Positions 57,579-63,844 of a stretch of 64,000 bases of DNA are shown in pieces. Within the stretch, counting starts at the first letter, position 1. Each line of letters opens with the position of its first letter. Origin of the DNA: a virus; the IMG/VR virus record IMGVR_UViG_3300018080_000002, positions 1 through 64,000 of that record; one strand, 5' to 3'. The notes beneath the pieces are model-generated. The model was not told where the DNA came from. It saw only the letters and a program-made list of their open reading frames with translations, and did no database searches. A program made the translations under genes and the position numbers.

Positions 57579-57607
57579 TTGACTCCAATTTGCTTATCGA
57601 TTACAAG
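57579..57607 (+). promoter_or_regulatory. promoter for the RNA array
   Basis: TTGACT (57579-57584), 17 nt, TACAAG (57602-57607). -10-like sequences also sit 3-8 nt before some individual units (TAGTAT, TAAAAT, GATAAT), so separate promoters are possible. Confidence 0.45.
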
Positions 57608-57613
57608 GGTATG

Positions 57614-57702
57614 GTCTATTGAACTTGTAGGACAATGGACGACTGGTATCTGAATGACACAGCTTCGAGAGTTTCACTCTTTTTTTGTCATTTAGATGCC
57701 AG
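57614..57702 (+). ncRNA. two-hairpin RNA at the head of the Y RNA array
   Basis: GTCTATTG pairs with CAATGGAC (57614-57640) and a 17-bp hairpin joins 57643-57659 to 57686-57702 (all positions paired, some as G-U). It lacks the conserved Y RNA loop sequences of the units downstream. Function unknown. Confidence 0.5.
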
Positions 57703-57755
57703 CCTGCTTGTGTTTTGATGTTTGATGTATTGCGTACTTAAAACCGTTCAAAAAC

Positions 57756-57825
57756 GGTAGCGAGATGTAAGTGAGGGCTACTTCGGCCATTATGAAATTC
57801 CCCTTGCTGATTTGTTTCCGCTATC
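57756..57825 (+). ncRNA. Y RNA-like RNA, unit 1 (plain hairpin type)
   Basis: 70 nt. Closing helix GGTAGCG/CGCTATC (57756-57762 with 57819-57825), conserved 5' loop strand GAGATGTAAG, inner helix GTGAGGG/CCCCTTGC, and conserved 3' strand TGATTTGTTTCC. No tRNA-like insert; the apex is a short loop. This is the minimal Ro60-binding Y RNA shape, matching the other four units in layout. Confidence 0.65.
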
Positions 57826-57838
57826 ATAGTATTTGTAC

Positions 57839-57950
57839 TGACGAGATGTATGTGAGAGTTACTTCGTAAGTTCGACTCTTATCCCTCCCTCCATTCCATT
57901 ACGGGGGGGTTGTCCAGTGGGGACATTTCTCTTACAGTCTGTTTCCGTCA
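57839..57950 (+). ncRNA. Y RNA-like RNA, unit 2, with permuted tRNA-like domain
   Basis: Closing helix TGACG/CGTCA. Inner helix GTGAGAG with CTCTTAC. The insert is tRNA-like in permuted order: T arm first (GTAAG-TTCGACT-CTTAT, 57866-57882), then the acceptor 3' strand CCCTCCC, a connecting loop, the acceptor 5' strand GGGGGGG, then D arm GTCC-AGTGG-GGAC (57912-57924). The acceptor stem is thus closed by a loop and the anticodon arm is replaced by the Ro60-binding helix. Bacterial Y RNAs are known to carry tRNA-like domains. Confidence 0.75.
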
Positions 57951-57966
57951 TCAATCAGGTAAAATT

Positions 57967-58078
57967 TGCAGAGTAGTGTAGGTTAGAGATACTTCGTGTA
58001 ATGGTTACACATCTGACTCGAAATCGGACGTAGCGGTTCAAATCCGCAGTTTTCCTCTTACTGATTGTTCTCTCTGCA
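57967..58078 (+). ncRNA. Y RNA-like RNA, unit 3, with tRNA-like domain in normal order
   Basis: Closing helix TGCAGAG/CTCTGCA. The insert has D arm GTGT-AATGGTT-ACAC, anticodon arm TCTGA-CTCGAAA-TCGGA (anticodon CGA at 58019-58021) and T arm GCGG-TTCAAAT-CCGC. The acceptor stem is not convincingly paired, so it is tRNA-like rather than a working tRNA. Confidence 0.7.
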
Positions 58079-58093
58079 TTAACGATATTTGAT

Positions 58094-58229
58094 ATAGGCG
58101 CAGTGTAGATTATGCTTACTTCGCATTGAAAGCGGCGGGTCGTTGGTTCGAGTCCAACTCTGGGGGTTTCCCCAGATAGCTCAGTTGGTAGAGCAGCTTC
58201 GTATGGCATTATTGATTGTTCTCGTCTAT
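58094..58229 (+). ncRNA. Y RNA-like RNA, unit 4, with permuted tRNA-like domain
   Basis: 136 nt. Closing helix ATAGGCG/CGTCTAT. Insert order: anticodon 3' strand, T arm GTTGG-TTCGAGT-CCAAC (58142-58158), acceptor 3' TCTGGGG, 4-nt loop, acceptor 5' CCCCAGA (58170-58176), TA, D arm GCTC-AGTTGGTA-GAGC, anticodon 5' strand. The 7-bp acceptor stem is perfect. This is a textbook circularly permuted tRNA fold fused through its anticodon arm to the Y RNA stem. Confidence 0.8.
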
Positions 58230-58248
58230 ACTAATTTTGCTGATAATG

Positions 58249-58386
58249 AGAGCGTGATGTAGATTATAGACTTCCTTCGCATTTTAGCTCACTTGGTAGA
58301 GCACAAAAGTTAGAATTTTGAGGTAGCGGGTTCAATCCCCGCAAATGTGACCATTAGGTCGGGTCTTATTCGCCTGTTTCCGCTCT
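58249..58386 (+). ncRNA. Y RNA-like RNA, unit 5, with a complete tRNA cloverleaf
   Basis: 138 nt. Closing helix AGAGCG/CGCTCT, conserved 5' GTGATGTAG and 3' CTGTTTCC strands, and a helix AGACTT/GGGTCT leading into a full tRNA cloverleaf (58278-58350) attached by its acceptor end, unlike units 2 and 4. Followed by TTTTA. Confidence 0.7.
58278..58350 (+). tRNA. tRNA cloverleaf inside Y RNA unit 5 (anticodon UAG)
   Basis: Acceptor CGCATTT/AAATGTG (7 bp), D arm GCTC-ACTTGGTA-GAGC, anticodon arm CAAAA-GTTAGAA-TTTTG with UAG at 58311-58313, 5-nt variable loop, T arm GCGGG-TTCAATC-CCCGC, discriminator A. UAG would read CUA (Leu), but the class II variable arm of Leu tRNAs is missing. It may be a mimic or may be cut free; sequence alone cannot tell. 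Confidence 0.6.
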
Positions 58387-58407
58387 TTTAATACGTTAGG
58401 TGATATT

Positions 58408-59127
58408 ATGCTTGTTGTTGATCAGAGTCAGTTTGATAGATTTTTTTCCATCCTAGAAAAACCCGAAAAAGATGAAGTATATTTTGTGTCTCTGTCAGCC
58501 AGAAACAAGTATTTGACTGATGAAGAACGCCAACGCTTTCGCCTTGGCAAAACGGAGATGTTTGGTCGGACCACTATCAAGGATTTTAACGATCTTCCAT
58601 ATATCGTGCGGAAGCTAGAGGGGTTCCTTGGCGCATATCGCACCAGGAGCGGTTTAGAGATCCCTGAGCAAGCGAGAGTGGTTTACATCAATGTCAACCC
58701 ATCCTCAACAATTAAGGCGTATACAGCCTTGACTAAGGATCTTAATGACGCTTTATTTCGTTGTCATCTCGGCACTTGTGATTACTCGATGTTCAAGTCT
58801 ATTGAGCGCAGGATTTTGAATCATGTCCAGAGATCCAGATCTCGGCAGGTTTTCGTAGATATTGATTTTGATAACGTATCGGAAACGCTTGTTAAGGTGT
58901 TTAGAGGTCGTATTAGAGATACCGAGAATTACTTGATACGAACGAAATCAGGTGTTCATGTTTTGATCAAAAAAGAGACTTTAACGAAAGATATCAAGCT
59001 TGGTGTGATCATTGAGAATTTCAATGATGAAGCTAAAACGAGCGGTGGAGAGGTCGAGATAAACCAGAACCAGATGGTTCCTATGCCGGGAACAATGCAA
59101 GCTGGTCATTTGGTTACGATCGAGTAA
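58408..59127 (+). CDS. possible primase-polymerase (AEP)-fold protein
   Basis: 239 aa. Residues 148-155 give VDIDFD, residues 180-188 KSGVHVLI, and the C-terminus MVPMPGTMQAGH. The order D-x-D, S-G-x-H, then P-G-(S/T)...G is that of archaeo-eukaryotic primase-type polymerases (metal Asp pair, nucleotide-binding His, and the end loop). The protein is small and lacks an attached helicase. Its place between the Y RNA array and Ro60 suggests an RNA-linked role, for example end-joining or nucleotide addition. Motif match by eye only. Confidence 0.5.
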   Translation: MLVVDQSQFDRFFSILEKPEKDEVYFVSLSARNKYLTDEERQRFRLGKTEMFGRTTIKDFNDLPYIVRKLEGFLGAYRTRSGLEIPEQARVVYINVNPSSTIKAYTALTKDLNDALFRCHLGTCDYSMFKSIERRILNHVQRSRSRQVFVDIDFDNVSETLVKVFRGRIRDTENYLIRTKSGVHVLIKKETLTKDIKLGVIIENFNDEAKTSGGEVEINQNQMVPMPGTMQAGHLVTIE

Positions 59128-59180
59128 TATCTGTCTGAAGAAACTAGAAAATCCCTAAAATACCTTATTTGACTGTTTTG

Positions 59181-59189
59181 TGGTATAAT
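59181..59189 (+). promoter_or_regulatory. extended -10 promoter
   Basis: TGGTATAAT: perfect -10 (59184-59189) with the TG extension; no good -35. Drives the 59224 gene. Confidence 0.5.
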
Positions 59190-59223
59190 ATAGCCAGAAA
59201 CCATTCCAAAAGGAGGGCTGGCT

Positions 59224-60084
59224 ATGTTTAGATTAGCAATCATAGCTTTGTCGTTTTGCCTCTCCTGCTCGATGTTTGCCCGTACAAATGTTAAGACGTT
59301 CATGCCTGAAAATGACTTACATTTAGAGGATGATCTTTTTTCTCTATATGGTACTTCCGAACAAGAATTTTATGACGTTATCGAGGATGCTGAGAGGGTA
59401 TTTGCTCCTATCGTAGAAAGGCTTGGGGGTAGATTGTATATCTATAAAAAGTGGTATGATAGCACTGTTAATGCAATGACTTATAGACAAGGAGATTGGT
59501 GGATCATTGAAATGTATGGTGGTTTGGCTCGTAGACGAGAAATAACTAGAGATGGTTTTAACATGGTTCTTTGTCATGAGTTTGGTCATCAACTTGGAGG
59601 ATTCCCTTTCGTTCAAGATTGGGCTGCGGCTGAAGGTCAATCGGATTATTATGCGACTCATGCGTGTGCTAAACTGCTTTGGGCTAATGACGACAATTCT
59701 TGGACAAGACGCCAAATTCCCGCTTTTCCGAAGGGATTATGTGATAGGACTTGGAAGTCTCAAGCTGATCGTGATCTGTGCTACAGGAGCATGTTAGCGA
59801 GTAAATCGACAAATGATTTGCTGGCTGTTTTGAGTGGAGAGAGGGTTAATTATAATACGCCAGATCGATCTGTGGTTAGACGGACGAATACCAGTTATCC
59901 GAGAACTACTCAGTGTAGGCTGGATACCATGATGGCGGGAAGTGTCTGTGTAGCTCGCTGGAATCATGGAAGAATCCCGTCAACTGAAAGGAGTTCAGTT
60001 TATTATTTGTGTTCTACGGCTAGAGGTTATAGTATGGGGGTTAGACCGCGTTGTTGGTTTGCTCCTAGAATTGGGTTGCATTAG
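59224..60084 (+). CDS. secreted zinc metalloprotease
   Basis: 286 aa. Signal peptide (MFRLAIIALSFCLSCSMFA). Catalytic HEFGHQLGG (zinc His pair and Glu) near residue 118, and a downstream acidic segment EGQSDYYATHACAK that could give the third zinc ligand (gluzincin-like). The C-terminal third is Arg/Ser/Cys-rich and may bind a surface. Would act in the periplasm or outside. AGGAGGG precedes the ATG. Confidence 0.75.
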   Translation: MFRLAIIALSFCLSCSMFARTNVKTFMPENDLHLEDDLFSLYGTSEQEFYDVIEDAERVFAPIVERLGGRLYIYKKWYDSTVNAMTYRQGDWWIIEMYGGLARRREITRDGFNMVLCHEFGHQLGGFPFVQDWAAAEGQSDYYATHACAKLLWANDDNSWTRRQIPAFPKGLCDRTWKSQADRDLCYRSMLASKSTNDLLAVLSGERVNYNTPDRSVVRRTNTSYPRTTQCRLDTMMAGSVCVARWNHGRIPSTERSSVYYLCSTARGYSMGVRPRCWFAPRIGLH

Positions 60085-60145
60085 TATGAGTGATGTTGTA
60101 TATCAACAAATTATAAGGTTGATCTTGTAAGAGAGGATTATTCGC

Positions 60146-60211
60146 ATGTTTTTTTTAGCACCACAAAAGCCAGAGATTAATGGTCATCAAGATTGGTACG
60201 ATGATCCGTAG
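60146..60211 (+). CDS. 21-aa leader peptide upstream of Ro60
   Basis: MFFLAPQKPEINGHQDWYDD plus Pro. AGAGG lies upstream. Its 5' part overlaps segment 1 and its stop overlaps segment 2 of the attenuator-like element, so ribosome position could choose between the two RNA folds. Real translation is unproven. Confidence 0.45.
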   Translation: MFFLAPQKPEINGHQDWYDDP

Positions 60212-60270
60212 GTGCTAATAAATAAAGTTTTCCCAACGCCTTAGCACCAAAAAGCTGAGGCGTTTTTTTT
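60155..60270 (+). promoter_or_regulatory. attenuator-like element before Ro60
   Basis: Segment 1 TTAGCACC (60155-60162), segment 2 GGTGCTAA (60211-60218), segment 3 TTAGCACC (60241-60248). Segment 2 is the exact complement of both 1 and 3. Segment 3 overlaps the rising arm of the terminator. Pairing 2:3 would block the terminator; pairing 1:2 would allow it. This is the classic attenuation layout. Confidence 0.6.
60235..60270 (+). terminator. intrinsic terminator before Ro60
   Basis: AACGCCTTAGC pairs with GCTGAGGCGTT (11 bp, one G-U), then a run of T. It lies 26 nt before the Ro60 start. Confidence 0.8.
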
Positions 60271-60295
60271 ATCCCGTATTTTTCGGAGGTGTAAG

Positions 60296-61876
60296 GTGTC
60301 AAGGTTTAATTCAACAGCAACTAAGGGGGTTCAGACTGTAAAAAATCACGGTGGAGCTGATTCGTACAAACTATCCAAGGAAGTAGAATTGTATTCGGTT
60401 GTTTGCAATAGTTTGATAACGGACAAGTATTACGAGAGTGGAGATAGTCAGCTCGCTAGAATCATAGAGTTGGTAAAAGACTGCGATCCAGTTTTTGTCG
60501 CTAACTTGGCATCCTATGCGCGTAACGAAATGAATTTGAGGACGGTTCCTGTGGTCTTGAGTACGTTGTTATGTAGGAATGTGGGTGGATCTGTAGCCAA
60601 AGATGCGGTTTTCAGGACGGTAAAACGTGCTGATGAAATCACTGAGGTTCTTGGTTATTTCGCTCAATTAAACAAAGACAATTGGAAAAAGATTAGCGAA
60701 AAAGGCCATATCAAGACTAAGAAAATGTCGAAATACTCTCACTCTTTAAAGAGAGGTATTGCGAAGGTATTTGAGTCTGGAAGGTTCGATCGATACCAAT
60801 TTTCTAAGTATAACAGGCAACGAGAATTTTCGTTCAAAGATGCTTTGTTTCTTTGCAATCCTAAGCCTCAGAACGATGAGATGGCTGAACTATTCAAGTT
60901 GATTGCGAGTGATGAATTGGGGTCTGCTGATACTTGGGAAGCTAAACAATCGGCTCTAGGTCAGGAGAATAAGGAGAAATCGGAGGATGAGGCGAAGGTA
61001 TCCAAGCTAGAGGTTTGGAAAGAGATGATTGCGAACAAAAAGCTTGGACACATGGCTTTGCTGAGAAACCTCAACAACATCCTTAAATGTAAGCCTGACT
61101 CTGCTTTTATGGATGATGTATGTCGAGAGCTGGTTCGTGGTGCTAAGAAAAGTAAGCAGTTTCCTTTTAGGTACTGGAGTGCCTATAAGACATTACAGAA
61201 AGATCATGGTCATCACTCAGATCCATTTCTGTTTCAGAAAGTATCTGATGCTCTGGAGCAGGCGATTAGGGATAGTATCAAGAGTATGAGTAAGTTTGAT
61301 GGAAATACTTTGATTGCCTGTGACGTTTCGGGATCGATGGTTACACCTGTTTCAGATAAGTCGATCATTCAAAATATCGATATAGGTTTGGTTCTTGGTT
61401 GTTTGTTAAAAAACGTTCAGAAACTAAATACTATTTTAGGTGTTTTCGGTGACGAATTTAAGATCATTACAGGTATCGGTAATGGGGTTTTGGCTGATGT
61501 CAGGAGTTCATTTGACTGGTCTCATAAAGTCGGTTGGTCGACTATGGGATACAAGGTCATTGAATACCTGAACAAAAGAAATTTGGATGTGAATCAGGTT
61601 CTTGTTTTCACTGACTGTCAGGTTTATGGATCTGCTGGAAATGGATACTACAGCAATGGTAATGAGATGGAGAGACAGTGGAGTATTTACAAGAGCAAGC
61701 ATCCTAATGCAAAGCTCTATATGTTCGATCTTTCTGGATATGGAAACGTGCCTCTAAGATTGGACAAAGGCGATGTTATTCATGTCGCTGGCTGGTCCGA
61801 TAGGATCTTTGAGGCGGTTGAGTATCTAAGAAAGGGATCTGATGCAGTAGATATGATTATGAACTATACTAGGTAA
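60296..61876 (+). CDS. rsr: Ro60 (TROVE/vWA) RNA-binding protein
   Basis: 526 aa, GTG start with CGGAGGT 7 nt upstream. The N-terminal TROVE region holds HEAT-like helices (FVANLASYARNEMNLRTVPV, ALFLCNPKP, MALLRNLNNILK, FPFRYWSAYKTL). The C-terminal vWA domain has the MIDAS motif D343-x-S345-x-S347 (ACDVSGSM) and FTDCQVYG (D440). Ro60 is a ring that binds misfolded RNA ends in its hole and Y RNA on its outside, and in bacteria links Y RNA to a nuclease. The Y RNA array 2 kb upstream supplies its partners. Length is close to bacterial Rsr (about 530 aa). tRNA genes follow. Confidence 0.9.
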   Translation: MSRFNSTATKGVQTVKNHGGADSYKLSKEVELYSVVCNSLITDKYYESGDSQLARIIELVKDCDPVFVANLASYARNEMNLRTVPVVLSTLLCRNVGGSVAKDAVFRTVKRADEITEVLGYFAQLNKDNWKKISEKGHIKTKKMSKYSHSLKRGIAKVFESGRFDRYQFSKYNRQREFSFKDALFLCNPKPQNDEMAELFKLIASDELGSADTWEAKQSALGQENKEKSEDEAKVSKLEVWKEMIANKKLGHMALLRNLNNILKCKPDSAFMDDVCRELVRGAKKSKQFPFRYWSAYKTLQKDHGHHSDPFLFQKVSDALEQAIRDSIKSMSKFDGNTLIACDVSGSMVTPVSDKSIIQNIDIGLVLGCLLKNVQKLNTILGVFGDEFKIITGIGNGVLADVRSSFDWSHKVGWSTMGYKVIEYLNKRNLDVNQVLVFTDCQVYGSAGNGYYSNGNEMERQWSIYKSKHPNAKLYMFDLSGYGNVPLRLDKGDVIHVAGWSDRIFEAVEYLRKGSDAVDMIMNYTR

Positions 61877-61916
61877 ATATAGCGACGATGTTAGAACATA
61901 GCATTGTCGCTATTTT

Positions 61917-61992
61917 GGGGTATGGGACTGCAAGGAGTGGTCACTGGCCTGTCACGCCAGAAATCAGGCGGGTTCAATTCCCGCATATCCCG
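61917..61992 (+). tRNA. tRNA-Asp(GUC)
   Basis: Acceptor GGGGTAT/ATATCCC, anticodon arm CTGGC-CTGTCAC-GCCAG, T arm GCGGG-TTCAATT-CCCGC, discriminator G. Confidence 0.85.
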
Positions 61993-61997
61993 TTTAC

Positions 61998-62069
61998 GCG
62001 GCTATAGGACAATGGCTAGTCCATCGGATTTTCAGTCCGGGCATCGGGGTTCGACTCCCCGTAGCCGTA
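61998..62069 (+). tRNA. tRNA-Glu(UUC)
   Basis: Acceptor GCGGCTA/TAGCCGT, D arm GGAC-GTCC, anticodon arm TCGGA-TTTTCAG-TCCGG, T arm CGGGG-TTCGACT-CCCCG. Confidence 0.9.
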
Positions 62070-62134
62070 TTTTGTATGACTGCTTCCGGTTTTTTTACGG
62101 AACCATATGTAGCAACGTTGGGAGAGTAAGGTTT

Positions 62135-62207
62135 GGAAGGGTAACTCAGTTGGTAGAGTGGCATCCTGATAAGGTGCTGGTCGATGGTTCAAGTCCATCC
62201 CTTTCCA
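62135..62207 (+). tRNA. tRNA-Ile(GAU)
   Basis: Acceptor GGAAGGG/CCTTTCC, anticodon arm GCATC-CTGATAA-GGTGC, T arm GATGG-TTCAAGT-CCATC. Confidence 0.9.
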
Positions 62208-62217
62208 CTTGTTTTAG

Positions 62218-62287
62218 GGGGCATCCTGTAGACGAGGTAACGCTCAAGTACGGGGGGATGTTGCGGGTTCGATCCCCGTGTGCTCCA
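62218..62287 (+). tRNA. degenerate tRNA-like gene
   Basis: Acceptor GGGGCAT/GTGCTCC and T arm GCGGG-TTCGATC-CCCGT are good, but no D or anticodon arm with U33 can be built between them; 70 nt. Probably a decayed tRNA or a tRNA mimic. Confidence 0.45.
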
Positions 62288-62296
62288 CTTGAATGA

Positions 62297-62368
62297 TGGG
62301 ATGTAGCTCAGTGGTAGAGCAAGCGGCTGTTAACCGCTAGGTCGCGGGTTCGATCCCCGCTTTCCCAG
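62297..62368 (+). tRNA. tRNA-Asn(GUU)
   Basis: T1 start, D arm GCTC-AGTGGTA-GAGC, anticodon arm AGCGG-CTGTTAA-CCGCT, T arm GCGGG-TTCGATC-CCCGC. One T-T mismatch in the acceptor stem. Confidence 0.85.
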
Positions 62369-62373
62369 CTTAA

Positions 62374-62446
62374 GCAACGGTAGCTCAGTCGGTAGAGCAC
62401 CAGACTGAAAATCTGGGTGTCGTTGGTTCAATTCCAACCCGTTGCA
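62374..62446 (+). tRNA. tRNA-Phe(GAA)
   Basis: Acceptor GCAACGG/CCGTTGC, anticodon arm CCAGA-CTGAAAA-TCTGG, T arm GTTGG-TTCAATT-CCAAC. Confidence 0.95.
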
Positions 62447-62456
62447 CTGGTTTTAA

Positions 62457-62529
62457 GGGTCATTAGTTCAGATGGTAGAACACGACACTTTTAATGTCGG
62501 GGTCGCTGGTTCAAGTCCAGCATGACTCA
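62457..62529 (+). tRNA. tRNA-Lys(UUU)
   Basis: Acceptor GGGTCAT/ATGACTC, anticodon arm CGACA-CTTTTAA-TGTCG, T arm GCTGG-TTCAAGT-CCAGC. Confidence 0.9.
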
Positions 62530-62538
62530 TTTGATTAT

Positions 62539-62611
62539 TGGGGTGTAGAGCAGTTGGTAGCTCAACAGTTTTTGATGCTGTCGGTCGCTGGTTCGAGTCC
62601 AGCCACCCCAG
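62539..62611 (+). tRNA. tRNA-Gln(UUG)
   Basis: Acceptor TGGGGTG/CACCCCA, D arm GAGC-GCTC, anticodon arm ACAGT-TTTTGAT-GCTGT, T arm GCTGG-TTCGAGT-CCAGC. Confidence 0.9.
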
Positions 62612-62730
62612 TTTTTAACTCATATGAGTCGAAAACTGCCCTAAAGTTATCGTTTAAAGACATTTTATGGGTAGTTTAGAGGTTGTTTGGGCTGTTAAAT
62701 ACAAATTGTGAGTATTTAGATGTTTTGTTT

Positions 62731-62804
62731 AGGGGAATAGCTCAGTTGGCTAGAGCGATAGATTCCAAATCTATAGGTCATGGGTTCGATCCCTATTTCC
62801 CCTG
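62731..62804 (+). tRNA. tRNA-Trp(CCA)
   Basis: Acceptor AGGGGAA/TTCCCCT, anticodon arm ATAGA-TTCCAAA-TCTAT, discriminator G. About 120 nt without a gene precede it; nothing seen there. Confidence 0.9.
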
Positions 62805-62863
62805 TTTGATTCGACACCGTTTGTAGGTTTGTCGGTGACTAAGTTTAAAAAACCTGCGCTTAT

Positions 62864-62937
62864 GGTGGGCTTATCTCAGTTGGTAGAGAGACGGGTTGTG
62901 ATCTCGTAGGTCGTGGGTTCGAGTCCCACAGTTCACC
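62864..62937 (+). tRNA. tRNA-His(GUG)
   Basis: Acceptor GTGGGCT/AGTTCAC with the extra G-1 opposite C73 that marks tRNA-His; anticodon arm ACGGG-TTGTGAT-CTCGT. Confidence 0.9.
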
Positions 62938-62948
62938 CTTTTTTATAT

Positions 62949-63022
62949 CGGGGTATAGCGCAGTCAGGTAGCGCACTTGCTTTGGGAGCAAGTGGTCATC
63001 CGTTCAAATCGGATTACCCCGA
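62949..63022 (+). tRNA. tRNA-Pro(UGG)
   Basis: Acceptor CGGGGTA/TACCCCG, anticodon arm CTTGC-TTTGGGA-GCAAG, T arm ATCCG-TTCAAAT-CGGAT. Confidence 0.95.
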
Positions 63023-63037
63023 CCATAAGATTGCTAC

Positions 63038-63103
63038 AGGCGTTGAAAGATCATTAATTTTTAGCCGACGACAGAGTGCTGAGATCCTTTGACGCCTTTT
63101 TAT
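63038..63103 (+). terminator. long-stem RNA hairpin ending in U-run
   Basis: 15-nt arms 63038-63052 and 63083-63097 pair at 14 positions (some G-U) around a 30-nt loop, then TTTATT. A terminator for the first tRNA block or a small RNA. Confidence 0.6.
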
Positions 63104-63229
63104 TGACATTCATTTTTACCAATGAGAAACTTGAATTTTAGGCTTTGTGTCTATTTATCTTTATTTTAGGCTTATGTATATGTTTTTAAGTTTGTACTCA
63201 AGTTTATATCTATCCTTACTCTATAAGAG

Positions 63230-63310
63230 TCAGGGGGTTGGTATGGTTTGATACGCTTATAGCATTGCATGAAAAACCCCTGATGTCTTAACCGATTTCA
63301 GGGGTTTTTT
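63230..63310 (+). promoter_or_regulatory. terminator with competing antiterminator before tRNA-Tyr
   Basis: Terminator: AAAACCCCTGA with TTCAGGGGTTTTTT (63272-63310). An earlier TCAGGGGGTT (63230-63239) can pair with the same AACCCCTGA arm and would prevent it. 63104-63229 is AT-rich with TTTTAGGCTT twice and no gene. Confidence 0.55.
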
Positions 63311-63317
63311 GATTTTT

Positions 63318-63408
63318 GGGGGAGCTGCGAAGATTGGCTGGTTTCGCATCGGATTGTAAATCCGGTCCCACAGGGTAAACGTTGTAGGTTCGAGTCCTAC
63401 CTCCCTCA
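63318..63408 (+). tRNA. tRNA-Tyr(GUA)
   Basis: Class II. Acceptor GGGGGAG/CTCCCTC, anticodon arm TCGGA-TTGTAAA-TCCGG, variable-arm hairpin CCC-ACA-GGG, T arm GTAGG-TTCGAGT-CCTAC. Confidence 0.9.
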
Positions 63409-63413
63409 CTTAT

Positions 63414-63487
63414 GGCTCAGTATCCCAATTGGTAGAGGAAGCTGGCTTAGACCCAGTTGGTTGTCAGTTCGAGTCTGACCTGAGCTA
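63414..63487 (+). tRNA. tRNA with anticodon UAG (Leu), short variable loop
   Basis: Acceptor GGCTCAG/CTGAGCT, anticodon arm GCTGG-CTTAGAC-CCAGT, variable loop only 5 nt, T arm GTCAG-TTCGAGT-CTGAC, A73. Bacterial Leu tRNAs normally have a long variable arm. Confidence 0.85.
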
Positions 63488-63497
63488 CTTGTTTTTT

Positions 63498-63572
63498 GGT
63501 CCCGTAGCCCAACTTGGTAGAGGCAATGGATTTAAAATCCATGAGTTATCAGTTCAAATCTGATCGGGACTA
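63498..63572 (+). tRNA. tRNA with anticodon UAA (Leu), short variable loop
   Basis: Acceptor GGTCCCG/CGGGACT, anticodon arm ATGGA-TTTAAAA-TCCAT, 5-nt variable loop, T arm ATCAG-TTCAAAT-CTGAT, A73. Shares the G1-U72 pair and D-arm style of the preceding tRNA. Confidence 0.85.
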
Positions 63573-63576
63573 CTCT

Positions 63577-63660
63577 GGAGGGATGGCCGAATGGTAAGGC
63601 TCTGGATTTGAAATCCAGTGGCGGGTAAAACCGATGGGGGTTCGATTCCCTCTCCCTCTG
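63577..63660 (+). tRNA. tRNA-Ser(UGA)
   Basis: Class II. Acceptor GGAGGGA/TCCCTCT, anticodon arm CTGGA-TTTGAAA-TCCAG, long variable arm, discriminator G. Confidence 0.9.
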
Positions 63661-63669
63661 CTTTTCTTT

Positions 63670-63755
63670 GGAGAGTTGCCCGAATGGTTAAGGGAGCACA
63701 TTGCTAATGTGTCGGTCTGAAATATGATCTCAGGGTTCGAGTCCCTGACTCTCCG
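63670..63755 (+). tRNA. tRNA-Ser(GCU)
   Basis: Class II. Acceptor GGAGAGT/ACTCTCC, anticodon arm GCACA-TTGCTAA-TGTGT, long variable arm, discriminator G. Confidence 0.9.
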
Positions 63756-63844
63756 TTTTTCTTCAAGTCTTTATTCAATTGATACAATTGCTGAAATGGA
63801 GGATAATGACAAAAAAGAATTTATGTCCAAATTGAGAGATAATA

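What the first reader, a model, noticed from the sequence alone, without database searches (positions are those of the whole stretch)
57579..63755. Ro60, Y RNAs and a large tRNA set gathered in one locus
Y RNA array, Ro60 and 15 clear tRNA genes lie within 6 kb. Ro60 in bacteria works in RNA quality control and rRNA/tRNA turnover. A phage that carries both tRNA mimics and real tRNAs may use Ro60 to protect its tRNAs from host anticodon nucleases or to direct a host nuclease to host RNAs.
Basis: inference. Interest (0 to 1): 0.7.

Follow-up and report, generated by a model that had tools for sequence, protein, structure and literature searches.

The report
Phage Ro60, tRNA-mimicking Y RNAs, tRNA cluster
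This phage carries a ring-shaped RNA-binding protein (Ro60), five small RNAs that pair the protein's docking stem with different tRNA look-alike heads, and next to them its own set of real tRNA genes; the parts are a known kind, but the mix of head designs and the shared neighbourhood with real tRNAs (which we find is more frequent than chance across phages) are little described.

Summary
Ro60 lies at 60296-61876 (TROVE, full length; the predicted fold matches the solved phage phiLo Ro60). Fifteen tRNAs lie at 61916-63756, and a 16th (Met) lies just outside the window. A Y RNA array lies at 57754-58389. A covariance model built only from other phages' Y RNAs finds unit U5 (E 4e-23 in 157 kb), U3 (2e-7), U4 (0.002) and U2 (3e-5, local search). 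U6 is assigned by anatomy alone. Two 'tRNAs' that ARAGORN calls in the array are heads of Y RNAs. Heads come in two layouts: circularly permuted tRNA (U3, U5, as in YrlA) and unpermuted cloverleaf on the Y stem (U4, U6), also seen in at least five other phages. Most permuted heads keep a covarying anticodon-like arm, in bacteria too. True tRNAs do lie near Ro60 more often than chance (28 dereplicated phage records, KS p=2e-6), as a regional effect rather than strict adjacency. Mechanism is untested. I favour a Ro60-Y RNP that re-targets a host tRNA-binding enzyme, first candidate PNPase; an anticodon-nuclease decoy is the main rival. No RtcB, RNA_ligase or RNase PH/PNPase match was found in the record.

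The parts
57754..57832 (+). Y RNA U2: short Y stem with a small loop head, no tRNA-like domain
   Evidence: R1 hit 22.1 bits, local E=3e-5; shares the 25-nt 5' motif with U3-U5
57835..57960 (+). Y RNA U3: permuted tRNA-like head (T arm, acceptor hairpin, D arm) without anticodon arm
   Evidence: R1 E=1.6e-7 in 157 kb
57968..58077 (+). Y RNA U4: unpermuted head (D arm, anticodon arm CUCGAAA, T arm); the Y stem takes the place of the acceptor stem
   Evidence: R1 E=0.0016 on the Y stem parts; MFE shows D, anticodon and T arms closed by a Y stem; miscalled tRNA-Ser
58092..58237 (+). Y RNA U5: YrlA-type circularly permuted tRNA head with anticodon-like arm (loop AUUGAAA)
   Evidence: R1 106 bits E=4e-23; Rfam YrlA E=5e-7; when unpermuted it is called tRNA-Ser(UGA) by ARAGORN, a permissive test (control)
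58248..58389 (+). Y RNA U6: complete class-I cloverleaf (anticodon loop GUUAGAA) inside a Y stem
   Evidence: tRNA CM 59.7 bits; flanking Y motifs; intended fold within 1.1 kcal of the MFE. Not hit as a whole by R1
60235..60270 (+). terminator-like hairpin upstream of Ro60
60296..61876 (+). Ro60/Rsr, TROVE ring plus vWA domain, 526 aa, GTG start
61916..63756 (+). cluster of 15 tRNA genes: Asp, Glu, Ile, Asn, Phe, Lys, Gln, Trp, His, Pro, Tyr, Leu(UAG), Leu(UAA), Ser(UGA), Ser(GCU)

Best explanation
The locus encodes a phage Ro60-Y RNP with several interchangeable adaptors. Shown: Ro60; four Y RNAs recognised by a model or homology (U2-U5) and a fifth by anatomy (U6), with a common type of stem and different heads, four of them tRNA-like; a neighbouring set of real tRNAs. 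Inferred: Ro60 binds the Y stem, and the tRNA-shaped heads dock a host protein that normally recognises tRNA, most likely PNPase as in the described RYPER machine, so that host RNA decay is steered toward chosen structured RNAs (rRNA, tRNA fragments) during infection. Different heads would recruit different partners or regulate access to the Ro60 ring. The real tRNAs serve translation separately; their shared neighbourhood reflects a common gene module and possibly the origin of Y heads from tRNA genes.
For: Ro60 fold and sequence. Y stem shown by covariation across 34 phage Y RNAs: 20 of 23 predicted pairs keep pairing with both sides changed in at least one sequence. A model without window sequences finds U5 at E=4e-23. 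Permuted Y RNAs lie within 4 kb of Ro60 in 48 of 95 phage loci and 44 of 80 bacterial loci. The literature describes YrlA's stem binding Rsr and its tRNA-like domain binding PNPase (PMC8394870). The record gave no RNase PH/PNPase, RtcB or RNA_ligase match, so the partner would come from the host.
Against: No binding or expression data; the host is unknown, so whether it has PNPase is unknown. Anticodon-like arms are not needed for PNPase tethering, and their retention is not explained. U2 lacks a tRNA-like head.
Confidence: 0.45

Rival explanations
1. Decoy model: tRNA heads with anticodon-like arms on Ro60 act as decoys or competitive inhibitors of host anticodon nucleases, sparing the phage's own tRNAs.
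For: Anticodon-like helix in 39 permuted heads: 90% of cells paired, 20 of 39 sequences changed on both sides at the loop-closing pair; U33 in 35 of 39. Varied anticodon triplets. True tRNAs near Ro60 beyond chance. Suggested for YrlA by Hughes 2020.
Against: Salmonella YrlA is not cleaved in that study; arms also occur in bacterial Y RNAs, so they are not a phage counter-defence speciality; U2 and U3 lack the arm; no RtcB or RNA_ligase family match in the record.
Confidence: 0.25
2. tRNA quality control: Ro60-Y captures misfolded phage pre-tRNAs, with heads gating the ring, which helps mature the neighbouring tRNA set.
For: Ro60 is known to bind misfolded small RNAs (PDB entries); the tRNA cluster begins 40 bp after the Ro60 stop.
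Against: In many phages Ro60 and tRNA arrays are far apart (W03, W06, W10, G003, G006, G021); loci without any tRNA exist.
Confidence: 0.13
3. No functional tie between Ro60 and the real tRNAs: both sit in the same accessory region, and Y heads descend from tRNA genes.
For: Regional but not local clustering; model R1 also rings across junctions of tandem tRNA genes (62306-62438, E=1.5e-8), so 3' half plus next 5' half mimics a permuted head.
Against: Heads are only about 70% like the phage's own tRNAs, so not recent copies; regional clustering itself is strong.
Confidence: 0.17

Closest known systems
YrlA Y RNAs with Rsr (Rfam RF02553; Salmonella, described in PMC8394870 and PMC7790460)
   Same: Ro60 gene with nearby Y RNAs; Y stem plus permuted T arm-acceptor-D arm head (U3, U5)
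   Different: Four or five RNAs instead of two (yrlBA); unpermuted heads (U4, U6); anticodon-like arm in U5; below Rfam's gathering score; no rtcBA
Thermus phage phiLo Ro60 (PDB 9l5y)
   Same: phage Ro60, best fold and sequence match together with the TROVE domain entry 9kop
   Different: about 25% identity; only one tRNA, 3.2 kb away, in the locus
Phage Ro60 loci with tRNAs around: Arthrobacter phage Atuin, Microcystis phage Mvi-JY20, Bacillus phage G
   Same: Ro60 within or beside a tRNA cluster
   Different: Unrelated phages, 24-29% Ro60 identity; Y RNAs there were not characterised in detail

Membership tests
Ro60/Rsr (TROVE) | TROVE HEAT-repeat ring plus vWA domain | tested here: met
   PF05731, phrog_850, AF2 and Foldseek to Ro60 structures
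Ro60/Rsr (TROVE) | metal-site (MIDAS) residues of the vWA domain | tested here: met
   D343, S345, S347, T416, D440 conserved across 14 Ro60s
Ro60/Rsr (TROVE) | NCBIfam NF041674 equivalog cut-off (bacterial Rsr) | tested here: not met
   21.9 bits against 900: not the equivalog subfamily
Ro60/Rsr (TROVE) | binds Y RNA | not testable with these tools
   needs biochemistry
Y RNA (phage/YrlA type) | 5' and 3' ends pair in a conserved stem near a Ro60 gene | tested here: met
   covarying stem in other phages; found by R1 in U2-U5; U6 by inspection and fold
YrlA (RF02553) | Rfam gathering score 69 bits | tested here: not met
   39.4 bits at 58135-58197; other phage Y RNAs also fall short
YrlA (RF02553) | permuted T arm-acceptor-D arm head | tested here: met
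   U3 and U5 yes; U2, U4 and U6 no
RNA repair operon (rsr-yrlBA-rtcBA) | RtcB ligase in the same genome | tested here: not met
   no PF01139 match in the 157-kb record, which may be incomplete
RYPER | Y RNA tethers Ro60 to PNPase | not testable with these tools
   no phage RNase PH/PNPase match; host unknown

The most novel reading that the evidence does not exclude
Phage and bacterial Y RNAs are in large part whole tRNAs, permuted or unpermuted, with working-looking anticodon arms of many identities. Arrays of them on Ro60 form a bank of tRNA decoys or adaptors against tRNA-targeting defence, repeatedly placed beside phage tRNA sets.
Probability: 0.2. Interest if true: 0.75.

Novelty: new variant of a known kind. 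Interest (0 to 1): 0.48.

Why it matters
It gives a testable link between phage Ro60 and tRNA biology. It shows that Y RNAs in phages use two head layouts and often keep an anticodon-like arm, and that public annotations list several of them as tRNAs, which distorts phage tRNA counts and codon-usage studies.

Tried and rejected
Using ARAGORN calls directly for Ro60-tRNA linkage: rejected, because many adjacent 'tRNAs' are Y-RNA heads. Using ARAGORN on unpermuted heads as proof of the anticodon arm: weak, because with the arm region shuffled about 60% of phage controls (607 of 1020) are still called, against 39 of 51 real heads; covariation was used instead. Ro60 alignment A1 was too diverse for the genome scan; A2 was used. 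PF09511 (T4 Rnl1) search was uninformative, since no control rang. The 17-bp hairpin at 57617-57726 is not a Y RNA by R1. Key primary papers (Chen 2014, Sim and Wolin 2018, Sim 2020) are not held, and no search showed Wang 2018 as held, so how far anticodon arms and unpermuted heads are already described could not be checked.

Full report
Observation. Ro60 (60296-61876) is a full-length TROVE protein. The AF2 model (mean pLDDT 82) matches the TROVE entry 9kop, the Ro60 dimer of Thermus phage phiLo (9l5y), vertebrate Ro60 and D. radiodurans Rsr, and metal-site residues are conserved. Fifteen tRNAs on the + strand fill 61916-63756; tRNA-Tyr is called by ARAGORN only. A tRNA-Met lies at 64703, outside the window, and no other true tRNA was found in the 157,357-base virus record.

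Y RNA array. Units share a 25-nt 5' motif (GATGTAnnT..TTACTTCG) and a 3' motif (CTGATTGTTTCC). Rfam YrlA rings in U5 at E=5e-7 but below its gathering score. Comparison with Y RNAs beside Ro60 in other phages gave a clean alignment (A5) with a covarying stem: 20 of 23 predicted pairs have compensatory changes. Model R1, built from A5 without any window sequence, finds U5 (E 4e-23), U3 (2e-7) and U4 (0.0016) in the record, and U2 in a local search (3e-5). U6 is assigned by its flanking Y motifs and fold: Y stem plus cloverleaf is within 1.1 kcal of the MFE. R1 does not hit U6 as a whole. R1 also rings on tandem tRNA genes (62306-62438, 1.5e-8), so hits that rest on T and D arms alone must not be trusted.

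Head layouts. U5 is a circularly permuted tRNA: anticodon-like arm, V loop, T arm, acceptor hairpin, D arm. U3 lacks the anticodon arm. U4 and U6 are unpermuted cloverleaves mounted on the Y stem, in U4 with the Y stem in place of the acceptor. The same unpermuted layout appears at L009 5806, L028 9466, L053 15433, L059 9198 and L067 9679, and by eye at L013 5371 and L004 4917. Several of these are annotated as tRNAs in public records. Across 39 permuted heads (23 phage, one of them U5, and 16 bacterial), chosen by length, T arm and acceptor hairpin but not by the anticodon arm, the anticodon-like helix is paired in 90% of cells. Taken with the T-arm helix, the register holds: 95% of cells paired, against 28-51% when slid. 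Its loop-closing pair changes on both sides in 20 sequences, and U33 is present in 35 of 39. So the arm is real, and it is not peculiar to phages. An ARAGORN call after unpermuting is a weak test.

Linkage with true tRNAs. With Y RNAs filtered out, 37 phage records holding a Ro60 and at least one tRNA (this one included) were tested against random placement in the same record: 10 within 500 bp (2.75 expected), 17 within 2 kb (4.7 expected). The 37 were partly hand-picked. The dereplicated set (one per 60%-identity Ro60 cluster, records of about 40 kb or more, window excluded, n=28) gives KS p=1.7e-6 and Fisher p=1e-4. One qualifying cluster (L074) was not searched for tRNAs. In one record (cr111_1) the tRNA counted as nearest looks like a Y RNA on inspection; the true nearest is then about 2 kb away, which changes little. 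For some records the tRNA list was cut at the weak end. Within loci of up to 10 kb either side that hold a tRNA there is little extra attraction (13 within 500 bp, 8.8 expected; Fisher p=0.42, KS p=0.01). The linkage is therefore regional, and a shared accessory region may explain it; no control gene was tested.

Function. RtcB, RNA_ligase and RNase PH/PNPase families gave no match in the record. Published work describes YrlA tethering Rsr to PNPase (PMC8394870) and proposes a competitive anticodon-nuclease inhibitor role (PMC7790460). I favour a host-enzyme adaptor (0.45) over decoy (0.25), no functional tie (0.17) and tRNA quality control (0.13). All mechanistic steps are inference.

Novelty. 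Ro60 with Y RNAs in phages is known; from memory, Chen et al. 2014 report Y RNAs near Ro60 in many bacteria and phages, and that paper is not held here. The locus is a new member. The mixture of permuted and unpermuted tRNA heads in one array and the tested tRNA neighbourhood make it a variant; how much of this is already described could not be checked.

Noticed in passing
window 57617-57726 +: 17-bp hairpin just upstream of the Y array, folds far better than shuffles (z=-4.6), not a Y RNA by model R1; function unknown.
   Followed up: partly
window 62214-62288 +: T-arm and acceptor-like sequence between tRNA-Ile and tRNA-Asn, not called as a tRNA: perhaps a tRNA remnant.
   Followed up: no
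L009 5666-5884; L013 5155-5222; L004 4917-4992: Features annotated as tRNA-Tyr, tRNA-Lys (csAssE-Sib), tRNA-Gln (CcrColossus) and tRNA-Gln (cr111_1) lie beside Ro60 and look like Y-RNA heads.
   Followed up: partly
window 62306-62438 +: The junction of tandem tRNA-Asn and tRNA-Phe scores as a permuted Y RNA (E=1.5e-8): a possible route by which permuted Y heads arise from tandem tRNA genes.
   Followed up: partly
window 59224-60084 +: Predicted secreted HExxH (HEFGHQ) metallopeptidase-like protein between the Y array and Ro60, no family match and no phage relative in the collection searched.
   Followed up: partly
L005 363-1817 and 5944-7473: Halovirus HGTV-1 carries RtcB about 4 kb from its Ro60 gene: a viral counterpart of the RNA repair pairing.
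   Followed up: no
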